Part shown: in pieces, positions 29,707-45,809 of the stretch
Numbering within the stretch: the first letter of the stretch is position 1
How the letters are laid out: each line of letters starts with the position of its first letter
Origin: Devosia sp. MC521
GTDB lineage: Bacteria > Pseudomonadota > Alphaproteobacteria > Rhizobiales > Devosiaceae
Assembly (NCBI RefSeq): GCF_014127105.1
Contig: NZ_CP059902.1
Coordinates: 529,001-593,000 of the forward strand
Length of the DNA stretch: 64,000 nucleotides
Direction: 5' to 3'
Notes under the pieces: model-generated
The model's input: only the letters and a program-made list of their open reading frames with translations
Told to the model about the DNA's origin: nothing
Database searches by the model: none
Program-made: the position numbers and the translations under genes

Positions 29707-29814
29707 GCCTATTTGACTGTTCAAACGCGCGGCGGGCCGAACGCCTGGCGCGCGCTTTGCCCTTGCCCTCTGGCCTAGCCCTGCCTAGAACAGCCCTGAC
29801 CACGGGGACTACGC

Positions 29815-30930
29815 ATGTCGTTCAACACTTTCGGCCACCTTTTCCGTTTCACCACTTGGGGCGAAAGCCACGGACCCGCTTTGGGCGTGGTGGTCGATGG
29901 TTGTCCGCCCGGCATCACCCTGACACCGGAAATCATCCAGCGCGATCTGGACCGCCGTAAGCCCGGCCAATCCAAGTTCACCACCCAGCGCCGCGAGGCC
30001 GATGAGGTGAAAATCCTTTCGGGCGTTTTCGAAGACGAACGCACCGACGGGCCGCGCACCACTGGCACGTCGATCTCGCTGATGATCGAAAACACCGATC
30101 AGCGCTCGAAAGACTATGGCGACATCCGCGACAAATATCGTCCGGGCCATGCTGACTATACCTACGACCAGAAATACGGCATTCGCGATTACCGCGGTGG
30201 TGGCCGCACGTCCGCGCGCGAAACCGCAGCGCGTGTTGCCGCTGGCGCTGTCGCCCGTCAGGTCCTGCAGGGCATTACCATCCGCGCCAGCCTCGTCCAG
30301 ATCGGCCCGCACAAGATCGACTACAACAATTTCGATTGGGCACAGGTCGACCAGAACCCCTTCTTCTGCGCCGACGCTAAGGCTGCCACCTTCTGGGCTG
30401 AATATCTTGATGGTCTGCGCAAGGACGGCAATTCCGTCGGCGCCGTCATTGAAGTTGTCGCCGAAGGCGTTCCCGCCGGCTGGGGGGCCCCAATCTACGG
30501 CAAGCTCTCCGCCGACCTCGCCTCGGCCATGATGAGCATCAATGCTGTAAAAGCCGTCGAAATCGGCGATGGTTTTGATGCTGCATCCCTCACCGGCGTT
30601 GAAAACGCTGATCAAATGCGCGCTGGAGAGGGTAAGCCTTACTTCCTCTCCAACCACGCTGGCGGCATTTTGGGCGGCATTTCCAACGGCGACCCGATCG
30701 TTTGCCGCTTTGCCGTGAAACCGACGTCCTCGATCCTGACCCCACGCCAGACGGTCAACACGCAGAACGAAAACACCGACATCATCACCAAGGGCCGGCA
30801 TGACCCTTGCGTTGGCATTCGTGCTGTCCCAGTGGGCGAAGCGATGATGGCTCTAGTTCTCGCTGACCACATGCTCCGCCACCGTGGCCAGACCGGCCGC
30901 GAAGGCGCTGTCGGTTTTGACCGCAATTAA
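29815..30930 (+). CDS. aroC: chorismate synthase
   Basis: Final shikimate-pathway enzyme, FMN-dependent, making chorismate from EPSP. The 371-residue protein has signatures [18 protein letters not shown], the RPGHADYTY segment and [16 protein letters not shown], and a C-terminal [17 protein letters not shown]. Length and motifs are complete. Its stop overlaps the end of the convergent MBL-fold gene by 4 bases. Confidence 0.97.
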
Positions 30931-31832
30931 GCGGGCGACAGCCTCGTTCCAAAGAGAGTGTGGCGCGCTTTAATCGCGCCGCGCTCCGCCAAATATTCGA
31001 CATGGGCAGCAATGGTCATACGTGCCGCCATCCGCACTTTCGGCGGCTGCGTGGGATAGATTTGGGCCACCACTTGCCTGATTGTCCGAGCCCCACCTCC
31101 AACGGCCGCAACCACTTGGCTATTGCGCATTTCACGATGCGCTTTGAGGGCACGAGCATAGTCCGGCCCGTTTTCAATCTCGCCGCCATGCGCTGGCAAA
31201 TAGCGGCGATAGGGCAGGGCGATCATCTTATCGAGCGAGCTAAAATAATCCGTCATCGACCCGTCGGGCGTCGACACCAAGGTTGAATTCCAACCCATGA
31301 CATGATCGCCCGTGAGAACAGTATCTGTGCCCGCAATGCCAAAGGCCAAATGATTGGCGCAGTGGCCCGGCGTGGTGTGCACCACGATCTCGACATCACC
31401 GGCCATGACCCGCTCACCATCATGCAGAACGCGGTCTGGGACGAGAGTGAAATGGCCAGACTGTGCAATTGGGTTCACTTCAAATCGCCGGAGCGGACGC
31501 GAAAGCCGATGGGGTCCATTCGACCATAGCGGTGCGCCCAAACGCTGACGCCAATAGGGAGCGGCAGCGCTGTGATCGCGGTGGGTGTGGGTCAGTATAA
31601 TTGCGTCTACGGAACGTCCTGCGATCGCGCGCTCCAGCGCTTGATAATGCGCCGCGTCCTCTGGTCCTGGATCGACCAAAGCCAGTCTTTCTTTGCCAAT
31701 CAAGAAACTATTAGTGCCGGTAAATGTGTATGCGGAAGCGTTCGGTGCAGTAACTCTGGTAACGCTTGGGTGTACAACTATCGAACGACCGGTATCGGCG
31801 CTAAATTGGGTGTTAAAAGCTAAGGCTTGCAT
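30927..31832 (-). CDS. MBL-fold metallo-hydrolase
   Basis: A 301-residue metallo-beta-lactamase-fold protein with the metal motif [11 protein letters not shown], a second ligand in TTPGHCANH and an Asp ligand in TGDHVMGW, followed by a C-terminal winged-helix-like tail ([17 protein letters not shown]). The layout, with a helical C-terminal domain, is that of the LACTB2/beta-lactamase-like endoribonuclease family, but glyoxalase-type members share it. Converges on aroC and is divergent from bioY. Confidence 0.87.
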
Positions 31833-31920
31833 CGGATCACACTAGGCCGTTTATATCGATTTCTCTGTTTTTGCAGATATTCTGTGCACGCGAATGCCAC
31901 CGTGAAGTGGAAGTTACGGC

Positions 31921-32565
31921 ATGACAGCTCTAATGCCTACCGTGAAAAATGGCGTGGTTTTCAATACCTTGCTCGGGGCTGTGCTGCCGCCTGGCCAAGG
32001 CGCGCGATGGGCCTTTTCGCTAGCCGCGATTTTGGTCGGCGCTGTTCTGATCGCGCTATCAGCCAGAATGAGTGTTTTCGCGTGGCCCGTTCCGGTGACG
32101 TTACAGAGTTTCGCCGTCGCTCTTCTGGCCGCTGTGGGGGGCGCCAGAATTGGCGTTGCGACCGTCGCGGTCTATCTGCTCGCAGGCGCATTGGGCGTGC
32201 CTGTTTTCGCCGGGGGAGGATCGCTCAACTATATGAACGGGCCAACGAGCGGCTTTCTCATCGGCTTTCTGGCGCAGGCTGCCATCGTCGGTTATGTCGC
32301 TGATCGTGGTGCCACCCAGCGTCCATTTCTGCTCTTCACCGGAATGATGCTGGGCAATTTGCTGATGTTTGTCTTTGGCTTTGCATGGCTCGTCATTATG
32401 TCTGGCGCGCAATGGGTCGATCAGACCAATGTATTCGCGTCCGCTTTCAGCAAAGCCGTGCAGCCGTTCATCATTTGGGACGTGCTCAAGATGGCGCTGG
32501 CGGCCCTCTGCGCAAGCGGCGTCTGGGCGCTGTTCATTGCACCAAGCGGCGAACCAAGCCTCTAA
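31921..32565 (+). CDS. bioY: biotin transporter BioY
   Basis: S-component of the biotin ECF transporter, 214 residues with about six membrane helices. It has the family segments PVPVTLQSFAVALLAA and LAGALGVPVFAGG with the GPTSGFLIGF motif. No bioM/bioN genes are adjacent, so it may use distant energising components or act alone. The start is behind GGAAG. It overlaps the convergent hypothetical gene by 4 bases. I see no perfect BioR palindrome upstream. Confidence 0.95.
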   Translation: MTALMPTVKNGVVFNTLLGAVLPPGQGARWAFSLAAILVGAVLIALSARMSVFAWPVPVTLQSFAVALLAAVGGARIGVATVAVYLLAGALGVPVFAGGGSLNYMNGPTSGFLIGFLAQAAIVGYVADRGATQRPFLLFTGMMLGNLLMFVFGFAWLVIMSGAQWVDQTNVFASAFSKAVQPFIIWDVLKMALAALCASGVWALFIAPSGEPSL

Positions 32566-33065: not shown

Positions 33066-33601
33066 GACAATACCTCATCCCAATGGCGCCACCTTAGCGA
33101 GCGAAGGTTGATCAAAGTATTTTTCGGCTGACCGCATTTGCGCGCGGCACGTAAGAGAAAATTCACCATCACTATGCGCGTGCGCAGCGTCATTCTCCGT
33201 TGGCAATTCTGCGTGCGGCGACGCTGAATAAACATGTACCGATCTCATCCGCTCATGCTGCCCGTAGGCCGCCAGGCATGCCCGTGACCTACTCCGCTCG
33301 CCCAAAGTTATTGGGTCTCGCAACAGGACCCGCAAATCGAAGCGATTGATTTCCCAAGGGTTCTAGGGGAGTGAAGCCCAAGAAGCAGCTCTAACAAGTC
33401 CGCTCTTGGCGCCGAACACCCGTGTAGCTGGTCGTGGCGATAGCGGGTGGCTAAGGCTTCCGCTGCAGGCGAAACGCTACGACCCGAACTTTGCGCGTTA
33501 GAGACTTAGTATCTGGGCGCGATCAAGTCGTTGAGAACTTTTCATCACCGATTTCATGATGTTGCGAAGCACAAATAACTCGTGTAGACACCACCTCACG
33601 T
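33066..33601. other. long spacer before tRNA-Gln, no gene seen
   Basis: About 536 bases without a credible coding frame on either strand. Codon use in the open frames is irregular, and I see no conserved RNA other than the tRNA that follows. It must contain the tRNA promoter and that of the gene at 33065. Confidence 0.5.
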
Positions 33602-33676
33602 TGGGGTGTCGCCAAGTGGTAAGGCACCGGTTTTTGGTACCGGCATTCCTAGGTTCGAATCCTAGCACCCCAGCCA
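33602..33676 (+). tRNA. tRNA-Gln (anticodon TTG), CCA encoded
   Basis: Acceptor TGGGGTG pairs with CACCCCA; discriminator G is followed by encoded CCA. The D-arm is CGCCAAGTGGTAAGGC, the anticodon arm CCGGT-TTTTGGT-ACCGG reads anticodon TTG for glutamine, and the T-arm has CCTAG-GTTCGAAT-CCTAG. All stems are complete. It marks the boundary between core genes to the left and the accessory island to the right; tRNA 3' ends are frequent integration targets, though I found no second copy of its end in the window. Confidence 0.95.
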
Positions 33677-33972
33677 CTCTCCATGCATCAGTAAATTCAA
33701 TGACTTAGCTGCCCGTCGTGGCACGTCATCGTAGCACCCGGTCGTAGCAAGGCGATCTGTAGAAAACTTGCCGTCCATCCTCCTGGGAACCATTTCCTTG
33801 GCAAAGGAATCACCAAGGCAGCGATGTGCACCGGACATCGGAAGTTGGGCCATGTCTCCGCTTCGAGACATGCCCGGCAAAATAGCCAGCTGACTGGAAA
33901 GGTCGGGGTGGGGGTGAGTGCAGCAATCGTGACGGTCCAAAACTGGCTCGACCCAGCTAGGAATTCTCCGAG

Positions 33973-34980
33973 TCATGCCCCCGATCGCATCTTGGCAAGC
34001 CATTCTTTCAGTTTAGGGCGATCAGCTGCTTCAATCGGATATGCCCGTGCCGTGCGGATTCTATCCGCGCCGGGCGAAAACGTCGATGTTGTGACAATCA
34101 GACCGGACTCTGCTTTTTCCCATTCGACATCGGTGTAGACCGACTTCACCAGCACCATGTCGATTTTTGCTTTTTGCCGCTTGCATTGCACGATGATCAG
34201 CGGCGGATCACTGGCAGCAGCATCCTTCGGGAATACCCGAAGGTCCACACCCTCGTCCCCGCGGCCAGGACCCATTTCAACCTTGTAGCCTTCGCGCTCG
34301 AAGAATTCGCCCGCCAAGCCCTCGAATTTCCGCCAGTGCATCTGATCTATTTCGTCGAAATTGCGATCGAGAAAATCGATGAAACGCTGATCGAGAAATT
34401 TGCCGTGTTGTGTTTCGAGCTTTTCGCTCGCAAACAAGTCCTTGAGTGTGACTTCGTCTTTCCATTCCACGTTCCGCACGCGTCCCAACGCGGAGCGATG
34501 CATGTCGTTGTTGACGCCAGAGATGATCTCCATAGCCATATCGAGGCCGTCACTGCCGTAGTTGTGGGCAACCGCAGTCAGTAAAGGGCCGGGATCAAGG
34601 GAGGCGCCATAGGGCACTTCGAGCACTTTCGCCTCGGCGATCTGCTTGCTGACCACTTCTACATAGAGCCGTTCGACCCCATGCAGGATTTCCAACTGTG
34701 CAGGATCGCTCTTATAGCGATGGAACAGCTGGATCGTGGTCGGGATGATGCTCGGAGACTCGATGTTGCCCAGCCGATACAGAAGCTGCGCTGCGGCCTC
34801 TTCTATTTCCACTGAATCGGTACGCCCCCCGGCCTTGCCTGCCGCGAGAAAGTCATCGCCAATCTGGCTGCCTGCTAGGAATTCGATGACCTCTTCCTCG
34901 GTAAGCACGACACCGGCTTTGAACGCAGCGATTTCGAGAAACGTATCGATCATCGACTGCCGAGAAAGCCAGATGCCCAT
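33973..34980 (-). CDS. Mrr-like restriction endonuclease
   Basis: A 335-residue protein with a C-terminal Mrr-cat type PD-(D/E)xK domain: FEGLAGEFFEREGYKVE, then GRGDEGVDLRVF with Asp about 246 and IIVQCKRQK with the Q-x-K active site (Gln265, Lys267), followed by GLIVTTSTFSPGA. Mrr cuts modified foreign DNA. The N-terminal 200 residues are helical and do not resemble the usual Mrr winged helix; they may be a different sensor domain. ATG 34980 is preceded by GAGGAG. It is the first gene of the accessory island and lies 0.7 kb from the nuclease/ATPase operon on the same strand. Confidence 0.85.
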   Translation of the reverse strand: MGIWLSRQSMIDTFLEIAAFKAGVVLTEEEVIEFLAGSQIGDDFLAAGKAGGRTDSVEIEEAAAQLLYRLGNIESPSIIPTTIQLFHRYKSDPAQLEILHGVERLYVEVVSKQIAEAKVLEVPYGASLDPGPLLTAVAHNYGSDGLDMAMEIISGVNNDMHRSALGRVRNVEWKDEVTLKDLFASEKLETQHGKFLDQRFIDFLDRNFDEIDQMHWRKFEGLAGEFFEREGYKVEMGPGRGDEGVDLRVFPKDAAASDPPLIIVQCKRQKAKIDMVLVKSVYTDVEWEKAESGLIVTTSTFSPGADRIRTARAYPIEAADRPKLKEWLAKMRSGA

Positions 34981-35692: not shown

Positions 35693-36748
35693 TCAGCCGA
35701 AGAGGTCCGGCATACGGCCTTTGACCAAATCCGGATTACCCATCAAAATCAAACCATCTCGACCAATGCTGCGATCAGATCGCCGGTTGGGGTCTGAAAC
35801 TTCATTGGCCTCAAACGGTGGATCACGGAGTGTCAGCAGAAACTCAATCGCCCCATTCTCGTCTTTGATACTCTGCAACTTTCGATAGATGGCCTTATGA
35901 ATTCCGAACTTCCAACCCGGCATGAACTCGATGCCGAGGTAATCGACGTCAATTTCAGTGACAAATCGCTGGAATAGCGGATCTAACACCACTGCGTAGG
36001 ACTGGTGAATGAGACGTAGTACACTGATCTGATAGTCATACGTTTCGCTGCTTGGCGGGTCTGTCACCTGTCCAAACGTGCCACTCTGGTCAAAAGCAAA
36101 CACGCACGCCGTGCGTGTCTCCGGCGCAACTCCATTGACAGTGGCAATCTGGCAAACTTGGCGCAGCGCCTTGTTGCGCGCGCTATTGACCACATTTTGG
36201 GTGACGCCATTGGTACCAAAGTTCGCGCGCCCCTTGCTTTCAATAACGTGATACAGACCATCACTCGTTATGGCGATGAAGTCTGGCTCTGACTTTTTTC
36301 CCACCTTCACGGAATGTCGGAAATGCTTAGGCATCGCTTTAGGTGGATATGTGAATTTAGGATCAGGGGCACCCAGCGTTCCCGTCCAATTTTCGAGCGG
36401 CGCAAAAACCACTGAGTTAAGATGATTAAGAGCGAACCAACGGGTCAGGGTCTCACCTAGTTTGAAGGCGTCGGATGCACGGTGCGAGGCCGTCAACCGC
36501 ATAAATCCCACCGTTGGCCTAAGGTCTGCGGTTAGAAGGCTGAAGATTGTAACAACACCGCGAAGCGACCACCAAAAGGCTCCCGTCAGCGGCGACATCC
36601 TGTGGTGGCTTGGTCCTAGAGCGATGAGGGAGCGGGCCAGTGATAGCCGCGTTGCGCCAATCGACTTTATCCCGTTCGTACTCGAGTAAATGCCAGTGAA
36701 GCCGGCGCAGGTGATCTTCTTGTGTGCGATGGAAACCTCCAAAGCCAT
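35693..36748 (-). CDS. putative PD-(D/E)xK nuclease-like protein paired with SMC-like ATPase
   Basis: A 351-residue protein with no named family that I recognise. Between residues 150 and 175 it reads SEPDFIAIT, then YHVIESKGR: an Asp (156), a following strand and Glu-x-Lys (170-172), the spacing and hydrophobic pattern of a PD-(D/E)xK nuclease core; the ALRQVCQIATVNG segment behind it fits the following helix. The N-terminal 80 residues are rich in hydrophobic residues and could belong to an overlong start. It begins 42 bases after the stop of the large ATPase gene, so the two probably form one operon. A DNA-cutting effector role is an inference. Confidence 0.6.
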   Translation of the reverse strand: MALEVSIAHKKITCAGFTGIYSSTNGIKSIGATRLSLARSLIALGPSHHRMSPLTGAFWWSLRGVVTIFSLLTADLRPTVGFMRLTASHRASDAFKLGETLTRWFALNHLNSVVFAPLENWTGTLGAPDPKFTYPPKAMPKHFRHSVKVGKKSEPDFIAITSDGLYHVIESKGRANFGTNGVTQNVVNSARNKALRQVCQIATVNGVAPETRTACVFAFDQSGTFGQVTDPPSSETYDYQISVLRLIHQSYAVVLDPLFQRFVTEIDVDYLGIEFMPGWKFGIHKAIYRKLQSIKDENGAIEFLLTLRDPPFEANEVSDPNRRSDRSIGRDGLILMGNPDLVKGRMPDLFG

Positions 36749-36790: not shown

Positions 36791-39700
36791 TTAGAATATG
36801 GTCCCATGCACTTTCCACAAGTCGTCGACAATAGATACGCCGGCGACTACGCTGCCCAATCCTGGAAATTGCACAAATTCGCCTTCACCAGTCTGTCCAA
36901 CATTCTCTAAATAGTAGACCGATGAACTTCCTGGCATCTGTTTCCCGAGCCGTTTGAGATATGCGAAGTGTTCCGACGCGTGAACGTCTTGTCGCGTTAC
37001 GACAGCCAGAATTCGTCCCTCCAACTGGGAGATTTCAGGCGGCCGTCCAAGCAGCACATGTCCGTTGTGCGGAGCTACCGGGAAGGCGCTATCGCCTGCG
37101 ACGACCGCCGCAGCCGTGACCTGGGAGAGGATGGCAGACGTCGTCGCGGGGATCGCTTCGTCTTGGGATTTTACAGGTATGGTCTCGTCGAACAATACAC
37201 CGACGATCTTGTTCAGCGTTGCGCTGCTTGCCTGAACAAAGTGTGTATGTGGCACTCGCGAATTGGTCGATGGCATGCTTTCCAAGGCAATCCGCGAAGG
37301 ATCTGCCTTGTCCATGCCCACTCGTCGCGCATAGGTCTTTCCAGGAGTTTGAACAACCGCGAAGTCGCCGTTGCGGACCTCAGCGGTCAGCGAAACGATC
37401 AACGTCTGTCCGGGAAACGCCACCAGTCCCAACGTTGGGGCTCGAAGCGTGAAAAGCGAAACGTTACCCATGCCCGCAAGATCGAACTTATCCTTTGCGT
37501 CCTCGACGCTTGTGAGCGGTGCCCCGCCCTCGTGAGCGGCAAGACGTCCAATAACAGATAAAGGCGCTATGGAAAAAGTGACGACGTCCGGTGGGGCAGG
37601 ACCTCTGGTAACTTCCGCCACGGCTTGATCTGGCGGCAAGCGGCCCATGAACCTGGCATAGGCAAGCCAGCAAGCGTCAATCGCGGCAAAGACAGCCTCG
37701 TAGCCTTGGCGTACGACCTCCGCATCGAACGGTGTGAGTTGATCTGCCTTACCGTGGTGAGCTTTATTGATCGCATCTCGAAAAGGTGCTCCGGCCTTCA
37801 GTTGAGGTAGATCAATCAGCTTCCGGAAAGGCTCTTCATTGAAAGGCCGTTCGCCTCGGTTACGCGCATTGGCGATCTTGCTAAGGAGATCATTCAACGT
37901 CGGATCTTTCAGGGTCGCAGGATCGGACGCAAGGAGATCCCAAAGCTTGATCTCAATGCGAACACGGACCGGGTGAACGAATGCCCGTGCAAGGGTAACA
38001 TCGTTCACGTTGGTCGTCTGCCAGTGCTCGCAGCGCTGGCGGGCTTCATCCGCGACCGGCGCAAGACTTACGGTACATTTCGATGTCGAGATCGCAGAGA
38101 ACTCCCACACCTCAGTACGTTGGGCTTGCCCGGCGATAGCATTCGCAGAGACAAACGCTTCAATGGCGGGGATGAAACCAAAATCATTGCTCAAGACGAG
38201 CGGGTTCATTTCCGCCGCAATAAGGTGCGGGACGGTCGCTGCAAGATTAGCGACGTTGCCCGGATCGAGCAAATCCTGCGGGTCATCCATCAAAATAGTA
38301 GAAATCCCCCCGGATCTCGCCCACACCTGCTGCCATAGCGCCATCACAAAGGCCGTTAGGTAAGCTCGCAGAGCCGAGGCATTCATCACATGATGCGCCT
38401 CTACCAAATGCTTGCCATGAGCCGCTAACAATGTGAGGCCATCGCTCTTAGCGGGATCCAAACCAGCGTAGGCTGGCGCCTGCAGAAACTGCGCCTTGTA
38501 CATCCGCTGCGACCAAGCGGTCGCCTGTGAATCGAGACTGAGAATAAGTCCGGAGACTTGATCATGAACAAGGGCTGGAAAACGTTTGAACGGCTCAACC
38601 GCCTTCGCAGCTCGATTGAGCTTTTCGAGACGATCACAAGCCGACTTCCACTTCATGCACGTTAGCTTGATCTGGGCTAGTTGACGGCGTACGCTGGCGA
38701 AAACAGTCGCCGCGTCAAGATAAGCCTTGAGAACGCTCAGCTGACCCGCCACCGAACGCTGGTTGGCTTGGATACCTGTCTCTGGCACCTCTGAGCGTAT
38801 AACGCCCGTGACGGCCGACTTTGCAAAATCAGCATAGGCGGCGCGATACTTCGACAGGTTGATAGCGCGGCGGACCTTCTTGATGGCGTTTCGTAGGCCT
38901 TCGTTGTCGGGAATCTCTGTCGGTATCGCTGCATCCGGCAGCGGCGCTCGCGTAGGTGCGTTCGCCCAGGCGAGGCGACACAGTTGGGCAATGCCCGGAG
39001 CCATGCTGCGAAGGGCATAAGGGAAATCTGGTTGATCGAATATCTCTTCTGATAGTGCAGTTATATAAATGGTCGAAAGATCATCCGGCACGTTGTCAGA
39101 CACAAAAGGTTGCAAACCTGCAGGCAGTAGCCCACGGAGCGCACGCATGGCGTCTCGCTCCCATTCTGATGCAGTCTTGATGAGCGCGGCATCCGCTTTT
39201 CGTGCCTGTTCTAAGGCGTCCGCTACAGGCTGGTTGAGCAACGCGTCCGTGGCAATCGCCCCGGGTTGGGTGAGGTCTCGATCGCAGACCGGACACACGG
39301 AAAAGGCGTGTCCGGGATGCACCGTTTCATGCCATTTAGCCACGAGACCGTACAAACGCAGCCGATCCGAGCGATCGGCGTCAGACAGACGGACGACCAG
39401 TTTTTTAGCCTCACTCTCGACGCCTTCCAACACGGTTTCAGCGGCGCTAAGATCTGCTTCCTGAAGTTCACCAAGCTTCGCGACCAGCTGAATCGATGGT
39501 AATGCCCTCAAGGCGGCACCGCTGAAGCAATTTTGAGCCGCTGTCAGTGCGTCACTAAACCTCTTAATCTCCGCATCCGTTGTCAGCGGCGGCAATGTCC
39601 CTAGGATCAGCGCTGCCTCTTCGGTAGCTTTGTCCTCTACTGCTTTCAGACGCTTTTCAGCTTCTTGGAGACCGGTCTCCCAAGCCTTAGGGTTGCTTTC

Positions 39701-40747
39701 GTTAGGGAGGACGACGCAATCAAGATCCGGCAAATCTTCGTATTCCTTCAGAAGATCGTCGAGGGTCTGCTTTTGCGCCTCAGCCGCGGCCTCGGTGGCA
39801 TTTTTTTCCTGCTTTGCCAACTTTGGATACTTGTCTGTTAGGCGGTCGTGCAGACGCTGGCTACGCTTTCCGAAGTGCGCTAGAGGACGCAAACCGGTCA
39901 GCGTCGAGACAGCCTGTGACAGTGTGGTCTTGTCGTCGAAACGGGTTGCAGCGGCAATCCCGGGCATTAGTGTACCGACCTGAAGCGCTAAGTCTGGCAA
40001 ACCCAACTTCTCCAAACCTGTGGTAATCGTCTTGAACGCTTTTTTTCCGTCCCGCTCTAGGCGGCGCTCAACCGCGACTTCCCGCCCATCGATCAGGGAT
40101 CGGAAAGAAAGCCGGACCCATGTATCGACTTTTGGCACGCCATCGACTGCCACCAGTTCTTGTTCTGTCGGAACCGGAACGATTGGCGGGATTTCGAAGC
40201 TGATCTTCTCTGCTTCGTCGTCGTCACTCGCGACTTGCACCGCGATGGATTCGTGCAACGGAGCCGGCAGCCCCTGCGAACGGTGTCCCAATCCCGTCAG
40301 GCACCAACAAACCGCACTCGCTAGAGAGGTCTTGCCTGCTCCATTAAACCCTCGAAACAGGGTCGTGGGCGCTGAAAGCTCGAGCTGGAAAGGCTTTGGA
40401 TCTGCGCCTTCTTCGGCACAATGCCGGTGCAAGCCGCGAAAGCGGTGTGCCTCAATCTTCACGAGCTTCCATTTCTGCGGAATTTGCGCAGTGTCATCTG
40501 AAGCGACTACGACCTTGGGCACGATATCCAGTGATGAGAGTACTCGATCGACCTCGCCGTCTTGAATCGAAGTGTCCTTATCGGGATTCCAATAGGCTTT
40601 GCGGTCTTGGTTGTAGAAAGCGAGTATGGCGCGGCTGTCATTCAATGGTAGGGAGAATTCTTCTCCACCAGCAATTTGTAAGGCCGTTCCCCCGATTAGA
40701 TCTCGAACTACTTCATCGAGAGTCAATTCTGCAATATTGCGCGGCAA
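36791..40747 (-). CDS. large SMC/Rad50-like ATPase with hook motif and tandem S24 (LexA/UmuD)-like C-terminal domains
   Basis: About 1,318 residues from TTG 40747 (GGGGG 5 bases upstream; the frame is open to 40816). Walker A is GFNGAGKTS (133-141), a central charged coiled-coil region carries the zinc-hook motif CPVC (485-488), and Walker B is TILMDDP (817-823) with a following signature LSNDFGF: an SMC/Rad50 ATPase split around a hook. After an AHHGKAD helical segment come two S24-like units. The first (about 1085-1190) has GLVAFPGQTLIV, VRNGDFAVV and NKIVGVLFD but lost the Ser and Lys. The second has AGDSAFPVAPHNGHVLL (Ser1220, codon 37088-37090) and FAYLKRL (Lys1265), the Ser-Lys dyad pattern of LexA and UmuD. 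I know no family with this layout. It precedes the PD-(D/E)xK-like gene in one operon. Confidence 0.8.
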   Translation of the reverse strand: MPRNIAELTLDEVVRDLIGGTALQIAGGEEFSLPLNDSRAILAFYNQDRKAYWNPDKDTSIQDGEVDRVLSSLDIVPKVVVASDDTAQIPQKWKLVKIEAHRFRGLHRHCAEEGADPKPFQLELSAPTTLFRGFNGAGKTSLASAVCWCLTGLGHRSQGLPAPLHESIAVQVASDDDEAEKISFEIPPIVPVPTEQELVAVDGVPKVDTWVRLSFRSLIDGREVAVERRLERDGKKAFKTITTGLEKLGLPDLALQVGTLMPGIAAATRFDDKTTLSQAVSTLTGLRPLAHFGKRSQRLHDRLTDKYPKLAKQEKNATEAAAEAQKQTLDDLLKEYEDLPDLDCVVLPNESNPKAWETGLQEAEKRLKAVEDKATEEAALILGTLPPLTTDAEIKRFSDALTAAQNCFSGAALRALPSIQLVAKLGELQEADLSAAETVLEGVESEAKKLVVRLSDADRSDRLRLYGLVAKWHETVHPGHAFSVCPVCDRDLTQPGAIATDALLNQPVADALEQARKADAALIKTASEWERDAMRALRGLLPAGLQPFVSDNVPDDLSTIYITALSEEIFDQPDFPYALRSMAPGIAQLCRLAWANAPTRAPLPDAAIPTEIPDNEGLRNAIKKVRRAINLSKYRAAYADFAKSAVTGVIRSEVPETGIQANQRSVAGQLSVLKAYLDAATVFASVRRQLAQIKLTCMKWKSACDRLEKLNRAAKAVEPFKRFPALVHDQVSGLILSLDSQATAWSQRMYKAQFLQAPAYAGLDPAKSDGLTLLAAHGKHLVEAHHVMNASALRAYLTAFVMALWQQVWARSGGISTILMDDPQDLLDPGNVANLAATVPHLIAAEMNPLVLSNDFGFIPAIEAFVSANAIAGQAQRTEVWEFSAISTSKCTVSLAPVADEARQRCEHWQTTNVNDVTLARAFVHPVRVRIEIKLWDLLASDPATLKDPTLNDLLSKIANARNRGERPFNEEPFRKLIDLPQLKAGAPFRDAINKAHHGKADQLTPFDAEVVRQGYEAVFAAIDACWLAYARFMGRLPPDQAVAEVTRGPAPPDVVTFSIAPLSVIGRLAAHEGGAPLTSVEDAKDKFDLAGMGNVSLFTLRAPTLGLVAFPGQTLIVSLTAEVRNGDFAVVQTPGKTYARRVGMDKADPSRIALESMPSTNSRVPHTHFVQASSATLNKIVGVLFDETIPVKSQDEAIPATTSAILSQVTAAAVVAGDSAFPVAPHNGHVLLGRPPEISQLEGRILAVVTRQDVHASEHFAYLKRLGKQMPGSSSVYYLENVGQTGEGEFVQFPGLGSVVAGVSIVDDLWKVHGTIF

Positions 40748-40816
40748 TGTCGCCCCCAGATTTGCTGCAGGGCAATCTGAACATTGTATGCTGACGATAA
40801 CAAGTGTTCTTGGCAA

Positions 40817-41203
40817 GATCGTCTAGAACCGCGCCTGGCCTGAATATGACCTGATCTCACAATGTCGTGGCCTTTTGGTTCGTGTTGCGCAAAACCGCAA
40901 ATGTCGCCTTTGCGAGGATAAGCTAGTTAGGCTCCAAATCCGCCGATCTCAAATTGACAGCCAAACTTTCGCTTGTGAGCGGGCACCGCCAAAAGCTGCA
41001 GGAGCCTTTCGGCCCCTCACTTGCCGGGCGTGGTTCGCTGCTGAATAGAACCCACGACGCCGTTGGTGATTTAGTTTGTCGTCGATATCCACGGTTGGTC
41101 ATGGTCAGATTTTGGGAAAGGGCCCTCGCGCCGGCTCGTGGTATGGAGATTTGAAGCGCGAACTGGTGTTGAACCTTCAGTCAAGTCGATGTTCTATGCG
41201 CCG
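40817..41203. other. divergent promoter region, no gene seen
   Basis: About 390 bases between the ATPase gene (minus) and the second SRAP gene (plus). It contains single GTTC and GAAC words but no GTTC-N7-GTTC SOS box that I could find. No coding frame is convincing. Confidence 0.5.
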
Positions 41204-41968
41204 ATGTGCAATCTCTACAGCCATACGAGCAATCGATCCGCTATCACCGCGATGGTGCCGGACTTGAAGCGTGCTTCTCCGAGCGTAGGTAACCTCGAAC
41301 CACAGGCGGGCATATTCCCTGATTATTTGGCACCTATAGTGCGCTGCGGGGCTCAGGGGCGGGAGTTGGCTATGGCTCGCTGGGGTATGCCTACTAGCCA
41401 GTATGCGTTGCTGCAGGCCGCTAAGAAGCGCGCTGAGAAGTTGGCTGCCAAAGGCGCAGAAGTCGATTTCTCTGAACTGTTGAAGGCGGAGCCTGATGGA
41501 GGCACGACCAACGTCAGGAACATCTACGATCCCCTTAAGAATACGTGGAACCGCCATTGGGCGCGGTGGATGGGGGAGGCAAATCGGTGTGTCGTTCCGT
41601 TCACGAGTTTCTCGGAGTTCGATAGCCGAGTTGGGAGCGATGGCCGGAAAATTGGCGATACCTGGTTCGCGTTAAATCCGAGCCGTTCGCTGGCTTTCTT
41701 CGCTGGTATCTGGACCGGCGGTTGGTCTGGGGTTCGGAAATTGAAAACTGGTGTTGAAGTGGACTTGGATCTGTTCGCCTTTCTCACGTGCGAGCCCAAT
41801 GACATCGTTGGTGCGGTTCACCCGAAAGCCATGCCGGTTATCCTCACCGAAGTAGAGGAGATCGAAATGTGGCTAACGGCTCCCAAAGAGGTTGCGATCC
41901 AGCTCCAGCGCCCATTGCCTAACGGTGTGTTGGAAGTTGTATCGGTCGGCCAGAAAGCTGATCCGTAG
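41204..41968 (+). CDS. second, divergent SRAP (HMCES/YedK-like) protein
   Basis: A 254-residue SRAP-domain protein. Start is placed at ATG 41204 so that Cys becomes residue 2 (MCNLYSH), as needed for the abasic-site cross-link. Other landmarks are PDYLAPIV, MARWGMPT, NVRNIYD, CVVPFTSFSEFD with the active Glu, and IVGAVHPKAMPVILT with the active His. It differs clearly from the copy at 25546 (MCGRYAS). It converges, with 1 base between stops, on the SOS-controlled zinc-ribbon gene, so a DNA-damage role in this accessory island is likely. Confidence 0.85.
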   Translation: MCNLYSHTSNRSAITAMVPDLKRASPSVGNLEPQAGIFPDYLAPIVRCGAQGRELAMARWGMPTSQYALLQAAKKRAEKLAAKGAEVDFSELLKAEPDGGTTNVRNIYDPLKNTWNRHWARWMGEANRCVVPFTSFSEFDSRVGSDGRKIGDTWFALNPSRSLAFFAGIWTGGWSGVRKLKTGVEVDLDLFAFLTCEPNDIVGAVHPKAMPVILTEVEEIEMWLTAPKEVAIQLQRPLPNGVLEVVSVGQKADP

Positions 41969-43039: not shown

Positions 43040-43597
43040 GTGACCGATGCCGTTCGCCTCTGCCGTGGCGTCGAAGATTACCGCCCGCTCTTCATTGAAG
43101 ATCCCCTTCGCATTGAAAATCCGGAATCTTATCGACGCCTGCGCCAGCAGACGGCAGTGCCGATCGCTGCAGGCGAGCAGTTGGGGACCAAGTGGCAGTT
43201 CCGTTCTCTTATCGAGGAAGAACTCATCGATTACGCACGTATCGATATGTGCATTGCAGCGGGCTTCACTGAATCCCGTAAGATCGCTGGTTGGGCAGAA
43301 ACCCACTACATCGACATTGCGGTTCACAACCCAATCGGCCCAATCTCGACCGCGGCGTGTCTACATCTAAACGTGGCGACGCCAAATATGCTGGTGCAGG
43401 AGCTTCCTCGCCGTCCTGGCGAGTGTCTGGGTGACGTCATTGTCAGCAAGCATCGCTGGGAAGACGGTTGGCTCTACGTTTCGGATGAGCCTGGGCTAGG
43501 GCTGGACGTGGATTGGGAAGGGCTCGCTCGATATCCATTCAAGCACGAGAGCCTGCCGATCTTTTACCGCGAAGATGGTGCTCTCACGAACTGGTAA
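43040..43597 (+). pseudogene. enolase-superfamily sugar-acid dehydratase, 5'-truncated
   Basis: The C-terminal 185 residues of a mandelate racemase/muconate lactonizing enzyme family protein, like galactonate or gluconate dehydratases. Visible are LFIEDPLRIENPESY (metal Glu), PIAAGEQLGTKWQF (metal Glu), RIDMCIAAGFTES and HNPIGPISTAACLHL. The N-terminal capping domain and the first half of the barrel are missing; upstream of about 43036 the sequence no longer resembles the family. It keeps a strong native terminator, so it is the remnant of a real chromosomal gene cut at the island border. Confidence 0.82.
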
Positions 43598-43632: not shown

Positions 43633-44015
43633 AGCGAAATGGACGTTAGTGAGATAGGGCCACTACCTGAGTGGAGACCTAGAACGAGCGGCGCCACTGA
43701 CACAATCGGACCTACAGCTCGTCCGATAGCTTGAATGCCGGTCGTTAGTTTCATCGATGCTCCTTACACCGTGTTGACCACCAGCCATTGTCACGGCGGA
43801 GGCTACCGGGGGCGCCACAGATCTCGCAGATATGTGCAGAAAGATGTTCTGCTGCGCAGATGATTTGGTCGCCAACTTCGGGAAGGTCTCCATGCCAGTA
43901 GATGCGCAAAGAACCATACTTTTCCTTGATTGTTCGGCATCAGCACCTGTGTCTCAGAAATGGGTTTGCGATTTAAGGAGAGTTCTGGTCTCGTCTGAGT
44001 GACGAAAGACCCAGA

Positions 44016-44390
44016 ATGACGACGAAAACAACGAAGACGAAATCATCCGCAGAGCAGGTTGTGAAGGACATTCGCCGCGCGACACGACGACACTTTTCGG
44101 CCGAGGACAAGATCCGGATCGTGCTCGACGGATTGCGTGGCGAGGACAGCATTGCTGAGCTGTGCCGACGTGAAGGCATCGCCCAGAGCGTCTATTACTC
44201 TTGGTCAAAGGAGTTCATGGAAGCTGGCAAGCGACGTTTGGCTGGTGACACAACTCGTGCCGCCACCAATGATGAGGTTCGGGATTTACGCAGGGAAGCA
44301 AGCGCGCTCAAGGAATGCGTTGCGGATCTGACGCTCGAGAACCGCCTGCTTAAAAAAAGCATGATCGGGGATGGGGAGGATATCGAATGA
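44016..44390 (+). CDS. IS3-family transposase OrfA
   Basis: A 124-residue DNA-binding subunit: a helix-turn-helix (RIVLDGLRGEDSIAELCRRE then GIAQSVYYSWSKEF) and a C-terminal leucine-zipper-like helix (EASALKECVADLTLENRLLK). It overlaps OrfB by 4 bases (ATGA), the arrangement that lets the two be joined by frameshift or read as a coupled pair. Complete. Confidence 0.9.
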   Translation: MTTKTTKTKSSAEQVVKDIRRATRRHFSAEDKIRIVLDGLRGEDSIAELCRREGIAQSVYYSWSKEFMEAGKRRLAGDTTRAATNDEVRDLRREASALKECVADLTLENRLLKKSMIGDGEDIE

Positions 44391-45367
44391 GATATCCCGC
44401 ATCTGAAAAGCTCGAGATTATCCGGCTGGTTGAGCAATCGCATCTCCCCACCAAACAGACGCTGGACCGGTTGGGTATTCCGCGGCGAACCTTTTATCGT
44501 TGGTACGATCGCTACTTGAACGGTGGCCCTGAGGCGCTGGAGGATCAATCCTCGGCACCAAGCCGGGTCTGGAACCGTATCCCGACCGGTATCCAAGACC
44601 AAGTCATCGAGATGGCTCTGGAGCACTCCGAGCTGAGCCCGCGCGAACTGGCGGTTCGCTTCACCGATGAGAGGGGCTATTTTATCTCAGAAGCCAGCGT
44701 TTACAGGCTTCTCAAGGCCCATGATCTCATCACCAGCCCCGCTTACGTAGTGATCAAGGCGGCCAATGAGTTCCACACCAAGACCAGCCGTCCCAACCAG
44801 ATGTGGCAGACCGATTTTACCTATTTCAAGATCATCGGCTGGGGCTGGATGTATCTCTCCACGGTGCTGGACGACTATTCCCGCTACATCATTGCCTGGA
44901 AACTGTGCACGACCATGCGGGCTCAGGATGTCACCGACACTCTGGACTTGGCATTAGCAGCTTCAGGCTGCGATCAGGCGCGTGTGCAGCATCGGCCGCG
45001 CTTGCTGAGTGACAATGGACCCAGTTACATCGCCCAGGAGCTTGCCGACTATATCGCAGCCAATGACATGGATCATGTCCGAGGCGCTCCGCTTCATCCC
45101 CAGACACAGGGCAAGATCGAGCGCTGGCACCAGACGCTGAAAAACCGGATCCTTCTAGAGAACTACTTCCTGCCCGGTGACCTCGAAAGCCAGATCGAGG
45201 CCTTCATTGAGCACTACAATCATAAGCGCTATCACGAGAGCCTCGACAATGTGACACCCGCAGATGCCTACTTCGGCAGAGCACCTGCCATCATCAAAAG
45301 GCGTGAAAACATCAAGCGCAAAACAATCCAGCATCGACGCTTGATGCACCATAGGCTTGCAGCATAA
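44387..45367 (+). CDS. IS3-family transposase OrfB (DDE integrase)
   Basis: A 326-residue DDE transposase with an N-terminal helix-turn-helix (LPTKQTLDRLGIPRRTFYRW) and an rve core: first Asp in WQTDFTYFKI, second in LLSDNGPSYI, Glu in GKIERWHQTLKN. The family tail YNHKRYHESL and TPADAYFGR is complete. With OrfA intact and no stop in either frame the element may still be active. Confidence 0.92.
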   Translation: MRYPASEKLEIIRLVEQSHLPTKQTLDRLGIPRRTFYRWYDRYLNGGPEALEDQSSAPSRVWNRIPTGIQDQVIEMALEHSELSPRELAVRFTDERGYFISEASVYRLLKAHDLITSPAYVVIKAANEFHTKTSRPNQMWQTDFTYFKIIGWGWMYLSTVLDDYSRYIIAWKLCTTMRAQDVTDTLDLALAASGCDQARVQHRPRLLSDNGPSYIAQELADYIAANDMDHVRGAPLHPQTQGKIERWHQTLKNRILLENYFLPGDLESQIEAFIEHYNHKRYHESLDNVTPADAYFGRAPAIIKRRENIKRKTIQHRRLMHHRLAA

Positions 45368-45422
45368 CATCAACCGAACGACGAGCAGTGCTCTCCGCTA
45401 ATCAAGGCGCAGATCTGAGCCA

Positions 45423-45809
45423 AAGCATCTGACGACGGACAAACTCCAGACGCAGAGCAAGATTAAAGCCTTCCCCATCTTGTGCTGTGGCAGGCGTACG
45501 CCAATCTGCCTTTTCGCCCGTCCGGTTCGACAAATGCCGTTATCGGACATCCGCCCAGAATTCCGGGCAGGGGCATCTCGCCACTTATCCAGGCGCGCTA
45601 TGCCCCTGTTAACCATAAAAAATTTGCCGCTGAAAAAATTGCGCCGCCACCCTTGCGGAACAAAAGACGAACCCCTAGCTTGACAATCGCAAGGCCCAAT
45701 CCCGGGTCTTTCACGCTCGGTTGGTCGCCTCGGATAAGAGAGCGGCTACCGGTTCCGTTGGCGCGGTTCCGGCAGCCTGACCACCCGTAGCCTGTCTGAG
45801 AGGTTACAA
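45423..45809. other. spacer upstream of the three-gene unit, no gene seen
   Basis: About 390 bases. A TTGACA word at 45680-45685 could be a -35 element, but no good -10 follows at the right distance. The frames on either strand look non-coding. The near-palindrome GCCCAGAATTCCGGGC lies near 45553. Confidence 0.4.

What the first reader, a model, noticed from the sequence alone, without database searches (positions are those of the whole stretch)
36791..40747. SMC/Rad50-like ATPase fused to two LexA/UmuD-like (S24) domains
The protein joins Walker A (GFNGAGKTS), a CPVC hook, Walker B (TILMDDP) and two C-terminal units resembling S24 self-cleaving domains. The first lost its Ser and Lys; the second keeps GDS (Ser1220) and LKRL (Lys1265), about 45 residues apart against 37 in LexA/UmuD. 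I know of no defined family with this layout. If the dyad works, the ATPase could be released or inactivated by RecA-stimulated self-cleavage, linking DNA damage to a DNA-loop-sensing ATPase, as a defence or repair switch. The motifs are seen; the activity is inference.
Basis: partly seen in the sequence, partly recalled or inferred. Interest (0 to 1): 0.88.

Follow-up and report, generated by a model that had tools for sequence, protein, structure and literature searches.

The report
Rad50-like ATPase with LexA-like tail
A gene found mostly on bacterial plasmids joins a DNA-break-sensor-type ATPase and a possible RNA-cutting centre to two LexA-like domains, one dead and one with its catalytic pair intact, so it may be a defence toxin tied to the cell's DNA-damage machinery.

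Summary
The ORF (36791-40747, minus) encodes Walker A, a CPVC hook, Walker B and two S24-like C-terminal domains. Profile comparison supports both S24 assignments (hhalign Prob 96 and 94; 0 of 100 column shuffles reach either score). In 17 aligned C-termini (22-91% identical to the window's) Ser1220 and Lys1265 are invariant; in the first domain the Ser position is T/S/N/A and the Lys is never kept.

New here: between ATPase and S24 domains Arg928-x3-Glu932 and His998 are also invariant (17 of 17). They match in order and position the catalytic triad of RloC, a Rad50-like zinc-hook anticodon nuclease activated by DNA breaks. Homology of that region is suggestive, not proven.

Against LexA-type self-cleavage: 28 of 31 control S24 proteins have Ala/Cys-Gly 34-36 residues before the Ser. 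The first S24 domain keeps the Ala but never the Gly (0 of 17); the second has such a site in 1 of 17.

Best reading: a mobile, RloC-like DNA-break-sensing RNase toxin with an added LexA-derived control module. Structure prediction failed (pLDDT 33 and 30). New variant of a known kind.

The parts
36791..40747 (-). Gene for the 1318-aa Rad50-like ATPase / RloC-like region / tandem S24 protein (TTG start; longest frame to 40816)
40325..40351 (-). Walker A GFNGAGKTS (residues 133-141)
   Evidence: G133, N135, G136, G138, K139 invariant in 15 of 15
39284..39295 (-). CPVC zinc-hook motif (residues 485-488)
   Evidence: C485 and C488 invariant in 15 of 15
38279..38299 (-). Walker B TILMDDP (residues 817-823), DDPQ in all 15 members
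37754..37966 (-). RloC-like set: Arg928-x3-Glu932 to Asn994, His997, His998
   Evidence: R928, E932, H998 invariant in 17 of 17; positions relative to RloC-like proteins
37202..37570 (-). S24-1: LexA-like domain with Thr1105 and Arg1141 at the Ser and Lys positions; GRLAA (A1070-A1071) at the LexA cleavage-site place, without the Gly
36794..37195 (-). S24-2: Ser1220-Lys1265 dyad intact, spacing 45
35693..36748 (-). Downstream 351-aa protein, PD-(D/E)xK-like motif by eye, weak NERD match (E 0.026, below cut-off); beside the ATPase gene in one other locus only (L004)
33602..33676 (+). tRNA-Gln at the edge of a stretch (about 33.7-41.2 kb) that has no DNA match in 12 of 12 sampled genus mates

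Best explanation
It is a single-gene, mobile defence (or plasmid-conflict) toxin of the ABC-ATPase plus RNase kind. A Rad50-like ATPase with a zinc hook senses DNA ends or abnormal DNA and, as in RloC, switches on a RNase centre made of Arg928, Glu932 and His998 that cuts tRNA or other RNA and stops growth. The two C-terminal LexA-derived domains are an added control module: S24-1 is a pseudo-protease whose cleavage-site region lacks the usual Gly; S24-2 keeps a Ser-Lys dyad that licenses or ends the RNase by proteolysis at a site not yet known, possibly helped by RecA filaments. Shown here: domain order, conservation of both polar sets, S24 homology, absence of the usual Gly, plasmid and accessory location. 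Inferred: RNase activity, proteolysis, DNA-end sensing, RecA, defence.
For:: R928, E932, H998, S1220, P1223, K1265, R1266 invariant in all 17 C-termini; in the 160-residue middle region only R, E, L and H are invariant. DDP-to-Arg distance 97-107 in 15 members against 104-124 in 11 RloC-like AAA_13 proteins; R-x3-E in 15 of 15 and 11 of 11; hook CxxC 15 of 15; with Walker B included, the default hhalign alignment with RloC-like proteins (Prob 87) runs through R-x3-E; global mode also puts the His in register. PMC2610378 (passages): RloC triad Arg-x3-Glu-x36-52-His, each residue needed; zinc-hook mutations alter activity. PMC3874168 (abstract and section 18): DNA breaks and linear DNA activate RloC. 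S24 homology. SbcD- or SbcC-like genes within about 7 kb in 7 of 22 loci; plasmids, defence-type neighbours, accessory location.
Against: The middle region alone does not match RloC C-termini significantly (hhalign Prob 0.2 and 0.5 in two tries, 1 of 100 shuffles as high or higher). No RNase or HEPN family was among the Pfam families that more than one member matched, and its PDB search gave 4 unrelated rows. In a third alignment mode (-mact 0.01) the His fell out of register. Glu-His spacing is 64-71, outside RloC's published 36-52. The place of the ABC signature reads N-x-S, not SEGE. Three of 14 AAA_13 proteins scanned showed no triad and were left out. No proteolytic site is conserved. SbcD/SbcC-like genes were not found in 15 of 22 loci or in the window stretch.
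Confidence: 0.45

Rival explanations
1. One reading: RecA filaments stimulate S24-2 to cut the same chain, LexA-style, releasing or inactivating the ATPase (with its RNase-like region).
For: Invariant Ser-Lys dyad. Ala-Ala 34-36 residues before the dead Ser position in 13 of 17, with A1071 invariant in a domain that otherwise drifts. Four of 17 have an [AC]G 28-31 residues before that position.
Against: The Gly after that Ala is absent in 17 of 17; an [AC]G 34-36 residues before Ser1220 occurs in 1 of 17, against 28 of 31 control S24 proteins. No exact LexA box upstream of 18 genes.
Confidence: 0.2
2. A Lamassu-like sensor with a protease effector: the ATPase is the sensor and S24-2 cuts cellular or phage proteins in trans; the R-E-H set is structural.
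For: All 15 members match a PADLOC LmuB model, best 7.9e-19; predicted protease subunits are among Lamassu effectors (PMC10586767 passages).
Against: No gene annotated as LmuA or LmuC in the annotated loci, though many neighbours are unnamed; LmuB is about 650 aa; does not explain the invariant R-E-H.
Confidence: 0.12
3. The S24 pair is only a dimerisation or RecA-docking scaffold; neither protease nor RNase is active, and the protein is a DNA-repair or plasmid-maintenance ATPase akin to SbcC.
For: S24-1 is dead and no cleavage site is conserved; SbcD/SbcC-like neighbours in 7 of 22 loci.
Against: Seventeen of 17 keep two separate polar sets, some at 22-24% identity.
Confidence: 0.13

Closest known systems
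RloC (Rad50-like zinc-hook anticodon nuclease; PrrC relative)
   Same: ABC ATPase with CxxC hook, DDP Walker B, then R-x3-E and a [S/H]-H at matching positions
   Different: 1318 aa against 725-797 aa in the 11 RloC-like proteins used; Glu-His spacing 64-71; no SEGE signature; extra N-terminal region and two S24 domains; no significant match of the RNase region alone
LexA / UmuD / phage repressors (peptidase S24)
   Same: S24-1 keeps LexA-like spacing and GRxAA; S24-2 keeps the GDS...LKR dyad
   Different: Tandem, C-terminal on an ATPase, no DNA-binding domain found by Pfam, one copy dead, usual Gly of the cleavage site absent
Lamassu LmuB
   Same: Best PADLOC match of the ATPase part
   Different: No gene annotated as LmuA/LmuC nearby, extra domains, about twice the length
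SbcC/Rad50
   Same: ATPase and hook; Rad50 chains lead the PDB matches of the full profile
   Different: R-E-H region and S24 tail; an SbcD-like gene nearby only in some loci

Membership tests
RloC | Rad50-like ABC ATPase with CxxC zinc hook | tested here: met
   C485/C488 15 of 15; Rad50 PDB matches
RloC | Arg-x3-Glu-x36-52-His triad with that spacing | tested here: not met
   Residues present in 15 of 15 but Glu-His spacing 64-71; published range in PMC2610378 passage
RloC | AAA_13 (PF13166) profile match | tested here: not met
   1 of 15 members, at E 0.17
RloC | Anticodon nuclease activity | not testable with these tools
   needs a tRNA assay
HEPN superfamily | R-x4-6-H motif and HEPN fold | tested here: inconclusive
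   An Arg with six residues between it and His997 in 8 of 17 rows (counted by eye), His998 in 17 of 17; no profile hit; no usable model
Peptidase S24, second domain | S24 homology with Ser-Lys dyad | tested here: met
   hhalign Prob 94; S1220, K1265 17 of 17; but no S24 chain found in the PDB by hmmsearch
Peptidase S24, second domain | Ala/Cys-Gly cleavage site about 35 residues before Ser | tested here: not met
   window: none; family 1 of 17 at 34-36; controls 28 of 31
Peptidase S24, first domain | S24 homology | tested here: met
Peptidase S24, first domain | catalytic Ser and Lys | tested here: not met
   Lys 0 of 17, Ser 3 of 17
Lamassu | LmuB with LmuA effector gene beside it | tested here: inconclusive
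   no gene so annotated in the annotated loci; neighbours were not scanned with LmuA models

The most novel reading that the evidence does not exclude
A DNA-break-activated RNase toxin governed by a duplicated LexA-like module in which substrate-like and catalytic functions have been split between two domains of one chain: a pseudo-protease with a locked cleavage loop beside an active Ser-Lys protease of changed specificity. It would wire an anticodon-nuclease-type toxin directly to the SOS machinery at the protein level.
Probability: 0.25. Interest if true: 0.85.

Novelty: new variant of a known kind. Interest (0 to 1): 0.62.

Why it matters
RloC is known to be switched on by DNA breaks. In the two RloC papers searched, RecA is not mentioned and LexA and SOS occur only in the reference lists. 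This family fuses RloC-like parts and LexA-like parts in one polypeptide, keeps both polar sets across a wide sequence range, and sits on plasmids. It gives named residues (R928, E932, H998, S1220, K1265, C485) for a direct test of whether LexA-type domains can control a toxin without the canonical Ala-Gly cut.

Tried and rejected
AlphaFold2 of residues 890-1318 (3 rows) gave pLDDT 33 and of 1060-1318 (3 rows) pLDDT 30: not used, and no fold search was run. A canonical HEPN R-x4-6-H (Arg990 to His997) was not relied on: that Arg is in 8 of 17 rows. The downstream PD-(D/E)xK-like gene as obligatory partner was dropped: outside the own genome it is beside the ATPase gene only in L004 among the loci then held. 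Phage origin: no match in 50,697 phage records; the 33 viral-contig hits were short stretches of ATPase motifs, from a capped candidate list, and three further viral scans found no relative. Most genome matches are generic ABC motifs and were not counted as members. LexA-box regulation of the gene: no exact box in 18 upstream stretches. A first tRNA search reached only 24 bases past the tRNA and could not test the island; it was redone with a longer query. The motif scan (18 of 37 Walker proteins match: 15 family members, 3 RloC-like) used a pattern fitted to the family and missed some known members, so it was not relied on.
Full report
Observation. The start at 40747 is a TTG; the longer frame begins at 40816.

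Family. tblastn finds 26 plasmid records, 14 with a place covering at least 80% of the query, none in 50,697 phage records, and three genome contigs at 81-87% in the best segment. In a draw of 385 genomes of the class, 4 including the own genome have a match, one of them partial with a stop. Profile searches of 398 and 297 genomes return many generic ABC hits; those covering about half the model or more are, besides the own genome, G475 and G490 (positions 4-602) in the first and G475, G789 and G944 (411-1309) in the second. Searches from two distant members return 23 and 22 plasmid records, all among the 26. The named carriers are Alphaproteobacteria except one Pseudomonas veronii plasmid. 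The six genus mates listed have no match or a best E of 2.7e-5 or weaker.

S24 domains. I aligned 17 C-termini (A2). Left out: the near-identical L002, the broken or degenerate L003, L016, L019, L020, and fragments L023, L024, L053 (L053 is in A5). Invariant in 17 of 17: Arg928, Glu932, Leu935, His998, Ala1071, Val1118, Leu1155, Ser1220, Pro1223, Lys1265, Arg1266, Gly1287, Gly1315. The S24-1 profile finds only LexA and UmuD chains in the PDB (16 of 16 rows at E up to 1); in HMMER's alignment with 1jhf A1070-A1071 fall on Ala-Ala of LexA and Arg1141 on the Lys of its VKRL. The S24-2 profile finds no S24 chain there, but hhalign against 31 S24 proteins fetched from genomes gives Prob 94 with Ser on Ser and Lys on Lys; S24-1 gives Prob 96; no shuffle of 100 reaches either score. 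The 31 are from 32 fetched loci; one without the expected Ser motif was dropped. The two domains match each other (Prob 95).

Cleavage site. Of the 31 control S24 proteins, 29 have [AC]G 25-50 residues before the Ser, 28 of them at 34-36. In S24-1 the place reads Ala-Ala (Ser-Ala in L008) and the next residue is never Gly (0 of 17); four of 17 have an [AC]G a few residues further on, 28-31 before the Ser position. Upstream of Ser1220 an [AC]G at 20-50 residues occurs in 3 of 17 (distances 25, 36, 23). A Glu (E1197), 23 residues before Ser1220 in the window protein, is invariant in 18 of 18, role unknown. That a changed Gly blocks LexA cleavage (lexA3, G85D) is recalled, from no call. So the Ser-Lys pair is under selection, but LexA-type self-cleavage is not what the sequences show.

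Middle region. Between Walker B and S24-1 the only invariant residues of a 160-residue stretch are R928, E932, L935 and H998, with N994 and H997 nearly so. RloC's mutationally supported triad is Arg-x3-Glu-x36-52-His, often with Ser before the His (PMC2610378, passages seen). I fetched AAA_13 proteins, scanned 14 and used 11; L109, L113 and L117 showed no usable triad and were left out. Walker B DDP to Arg is 104-124 residues in the 11 and 97-107 in 15 family members; Glu to His is 36-54 and 64-71. Before the His stands Ser in 10 of 11 and His in 1; in the family His in 14 of 15. An Asn four before the His is in 7 of 11 and 14 of 15. Profile comparison of this region alone is not significant (Prob 0.5, 1 of 100 shuffles as high or higher). 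With Walker B included, the default alignment runs through R-x3-E, the global one also brings the His into register, and the -mact 0.01 one does not. I regard an RloC-like RNase centre as the most likely meaning, not as shown.

Context. SbcD- or SbcC-like genes lie within about 7 kb in 7 of 22 loci (L002, L010, L015, L016, L017, L019, L020; in L015 and L016 SbcD only), not in window 25-60 kb; L155-L157 were not scanned, and flanks differ in length. Other neighbours include a SLATT gene and a reverse transcriptase (L008), a Shedu nuclease (L011), an abortive-infection gene (L014) and AbiEii genes (L017, L020, L155). In the window an Mrr-type restriction endonuclease (PF04471, E 1e-23) lies between the gene and a tRNA-Gln. 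In 12 sampled genus mates DNA matches cover parts of window 29800-32550 and the tRNA (33559-33692 at most), and resume at about 41200; nothing between about 33.7 and 41.2 kb, where this gene lies, is matched in any of the 12. That fits an island next to the tRNA. No repeat of the tRNA's 3' end was found in the window.

Broken copies. L156 (IS630 at residue 1109), L003 (frame leaves the family at 1150) and L016 (frameshift at 1160/1162) are open up to a break inside S24-1; L155 breaks near 1160 with an IS21 but has other lesions (residues 73-385 missing). L019 and L020 are broken elsewhere. Independence of these events is uncertain. If the upstream part is made, a truncated ATPase plus R-E-H region is tolerated, which would fit S24-2 being needed for activity rather than for restraint. 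This is a lead only.

Literature. Searches for S24/LexA together with RloC, HEPN, SMC-like ATPases or defence listed no paper whose title or abstract start describes this fusion. Find-searches in the main texts of PMC3710099, PMC10853773, PMC12839542 and PMC10586767 give 0 hits for LexA and S24. In the RloC papers PMC3874168 and PMC2610378 RecA has 0 hits and LexA and SOS occur only in references; PMC3978071 names RloC only in a reference. The library holds open-licence papers only, so absence there is weak.

Verdict. Observation confirmed; interpretation partly supported; new variant of a known kind (ABC-ATPase RNase toxins of the RloC type), with a LexA-derived tandem module whose biochemical job is open.

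Noticed in passing
window 41160-41174: GAAC-N7-GAAC, the alphaproteobacterial LexA-box pattern as I recall it, just before the probable start of an SRAP (SOS-associated peptidase) gene at 41138-41968; a 70% identical stretch of this gene's region lies elsewhere in the own genome.
   Followed up: partly
window 33973-34980: Mrr-type restriction endonuclease gene near the tRNA-Gln, in the same accessory stretch.
   Followed up: partly
window 35693-36748: Protein with PDF...ESKG (PD-(D/E)xK-like by eye); relatives below 60% identity (29-30% in the listed rows) on 107 plasmid records, 94 of them Agrobacterium.
   Followed up: partly
L016, L017, L155, L156, L157: A DUF1403 gene and an ScpB-like gene lie side by side near the ATPase gene or its remnant.
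   Followed up: no
L003, L016, L155, L156: Broken copies of the gene break within S24-1 (residues 1109 to about 1160).
   Followed up: partly
L011 16772-19840; L016 4252-7810: S8 peptidase gene next to a gene for an ATP-binding protein, near the ATPase gene in two plasmids.
   Followed up: no
window 43040-43597 and 43931-45441: A 185-aa ORF that looks like the 3' part of an enolase-superfamily gene (by eye), near an IS-type element with at least four other long copies (80-100% identical) in the own genome.
   Followed up: partly
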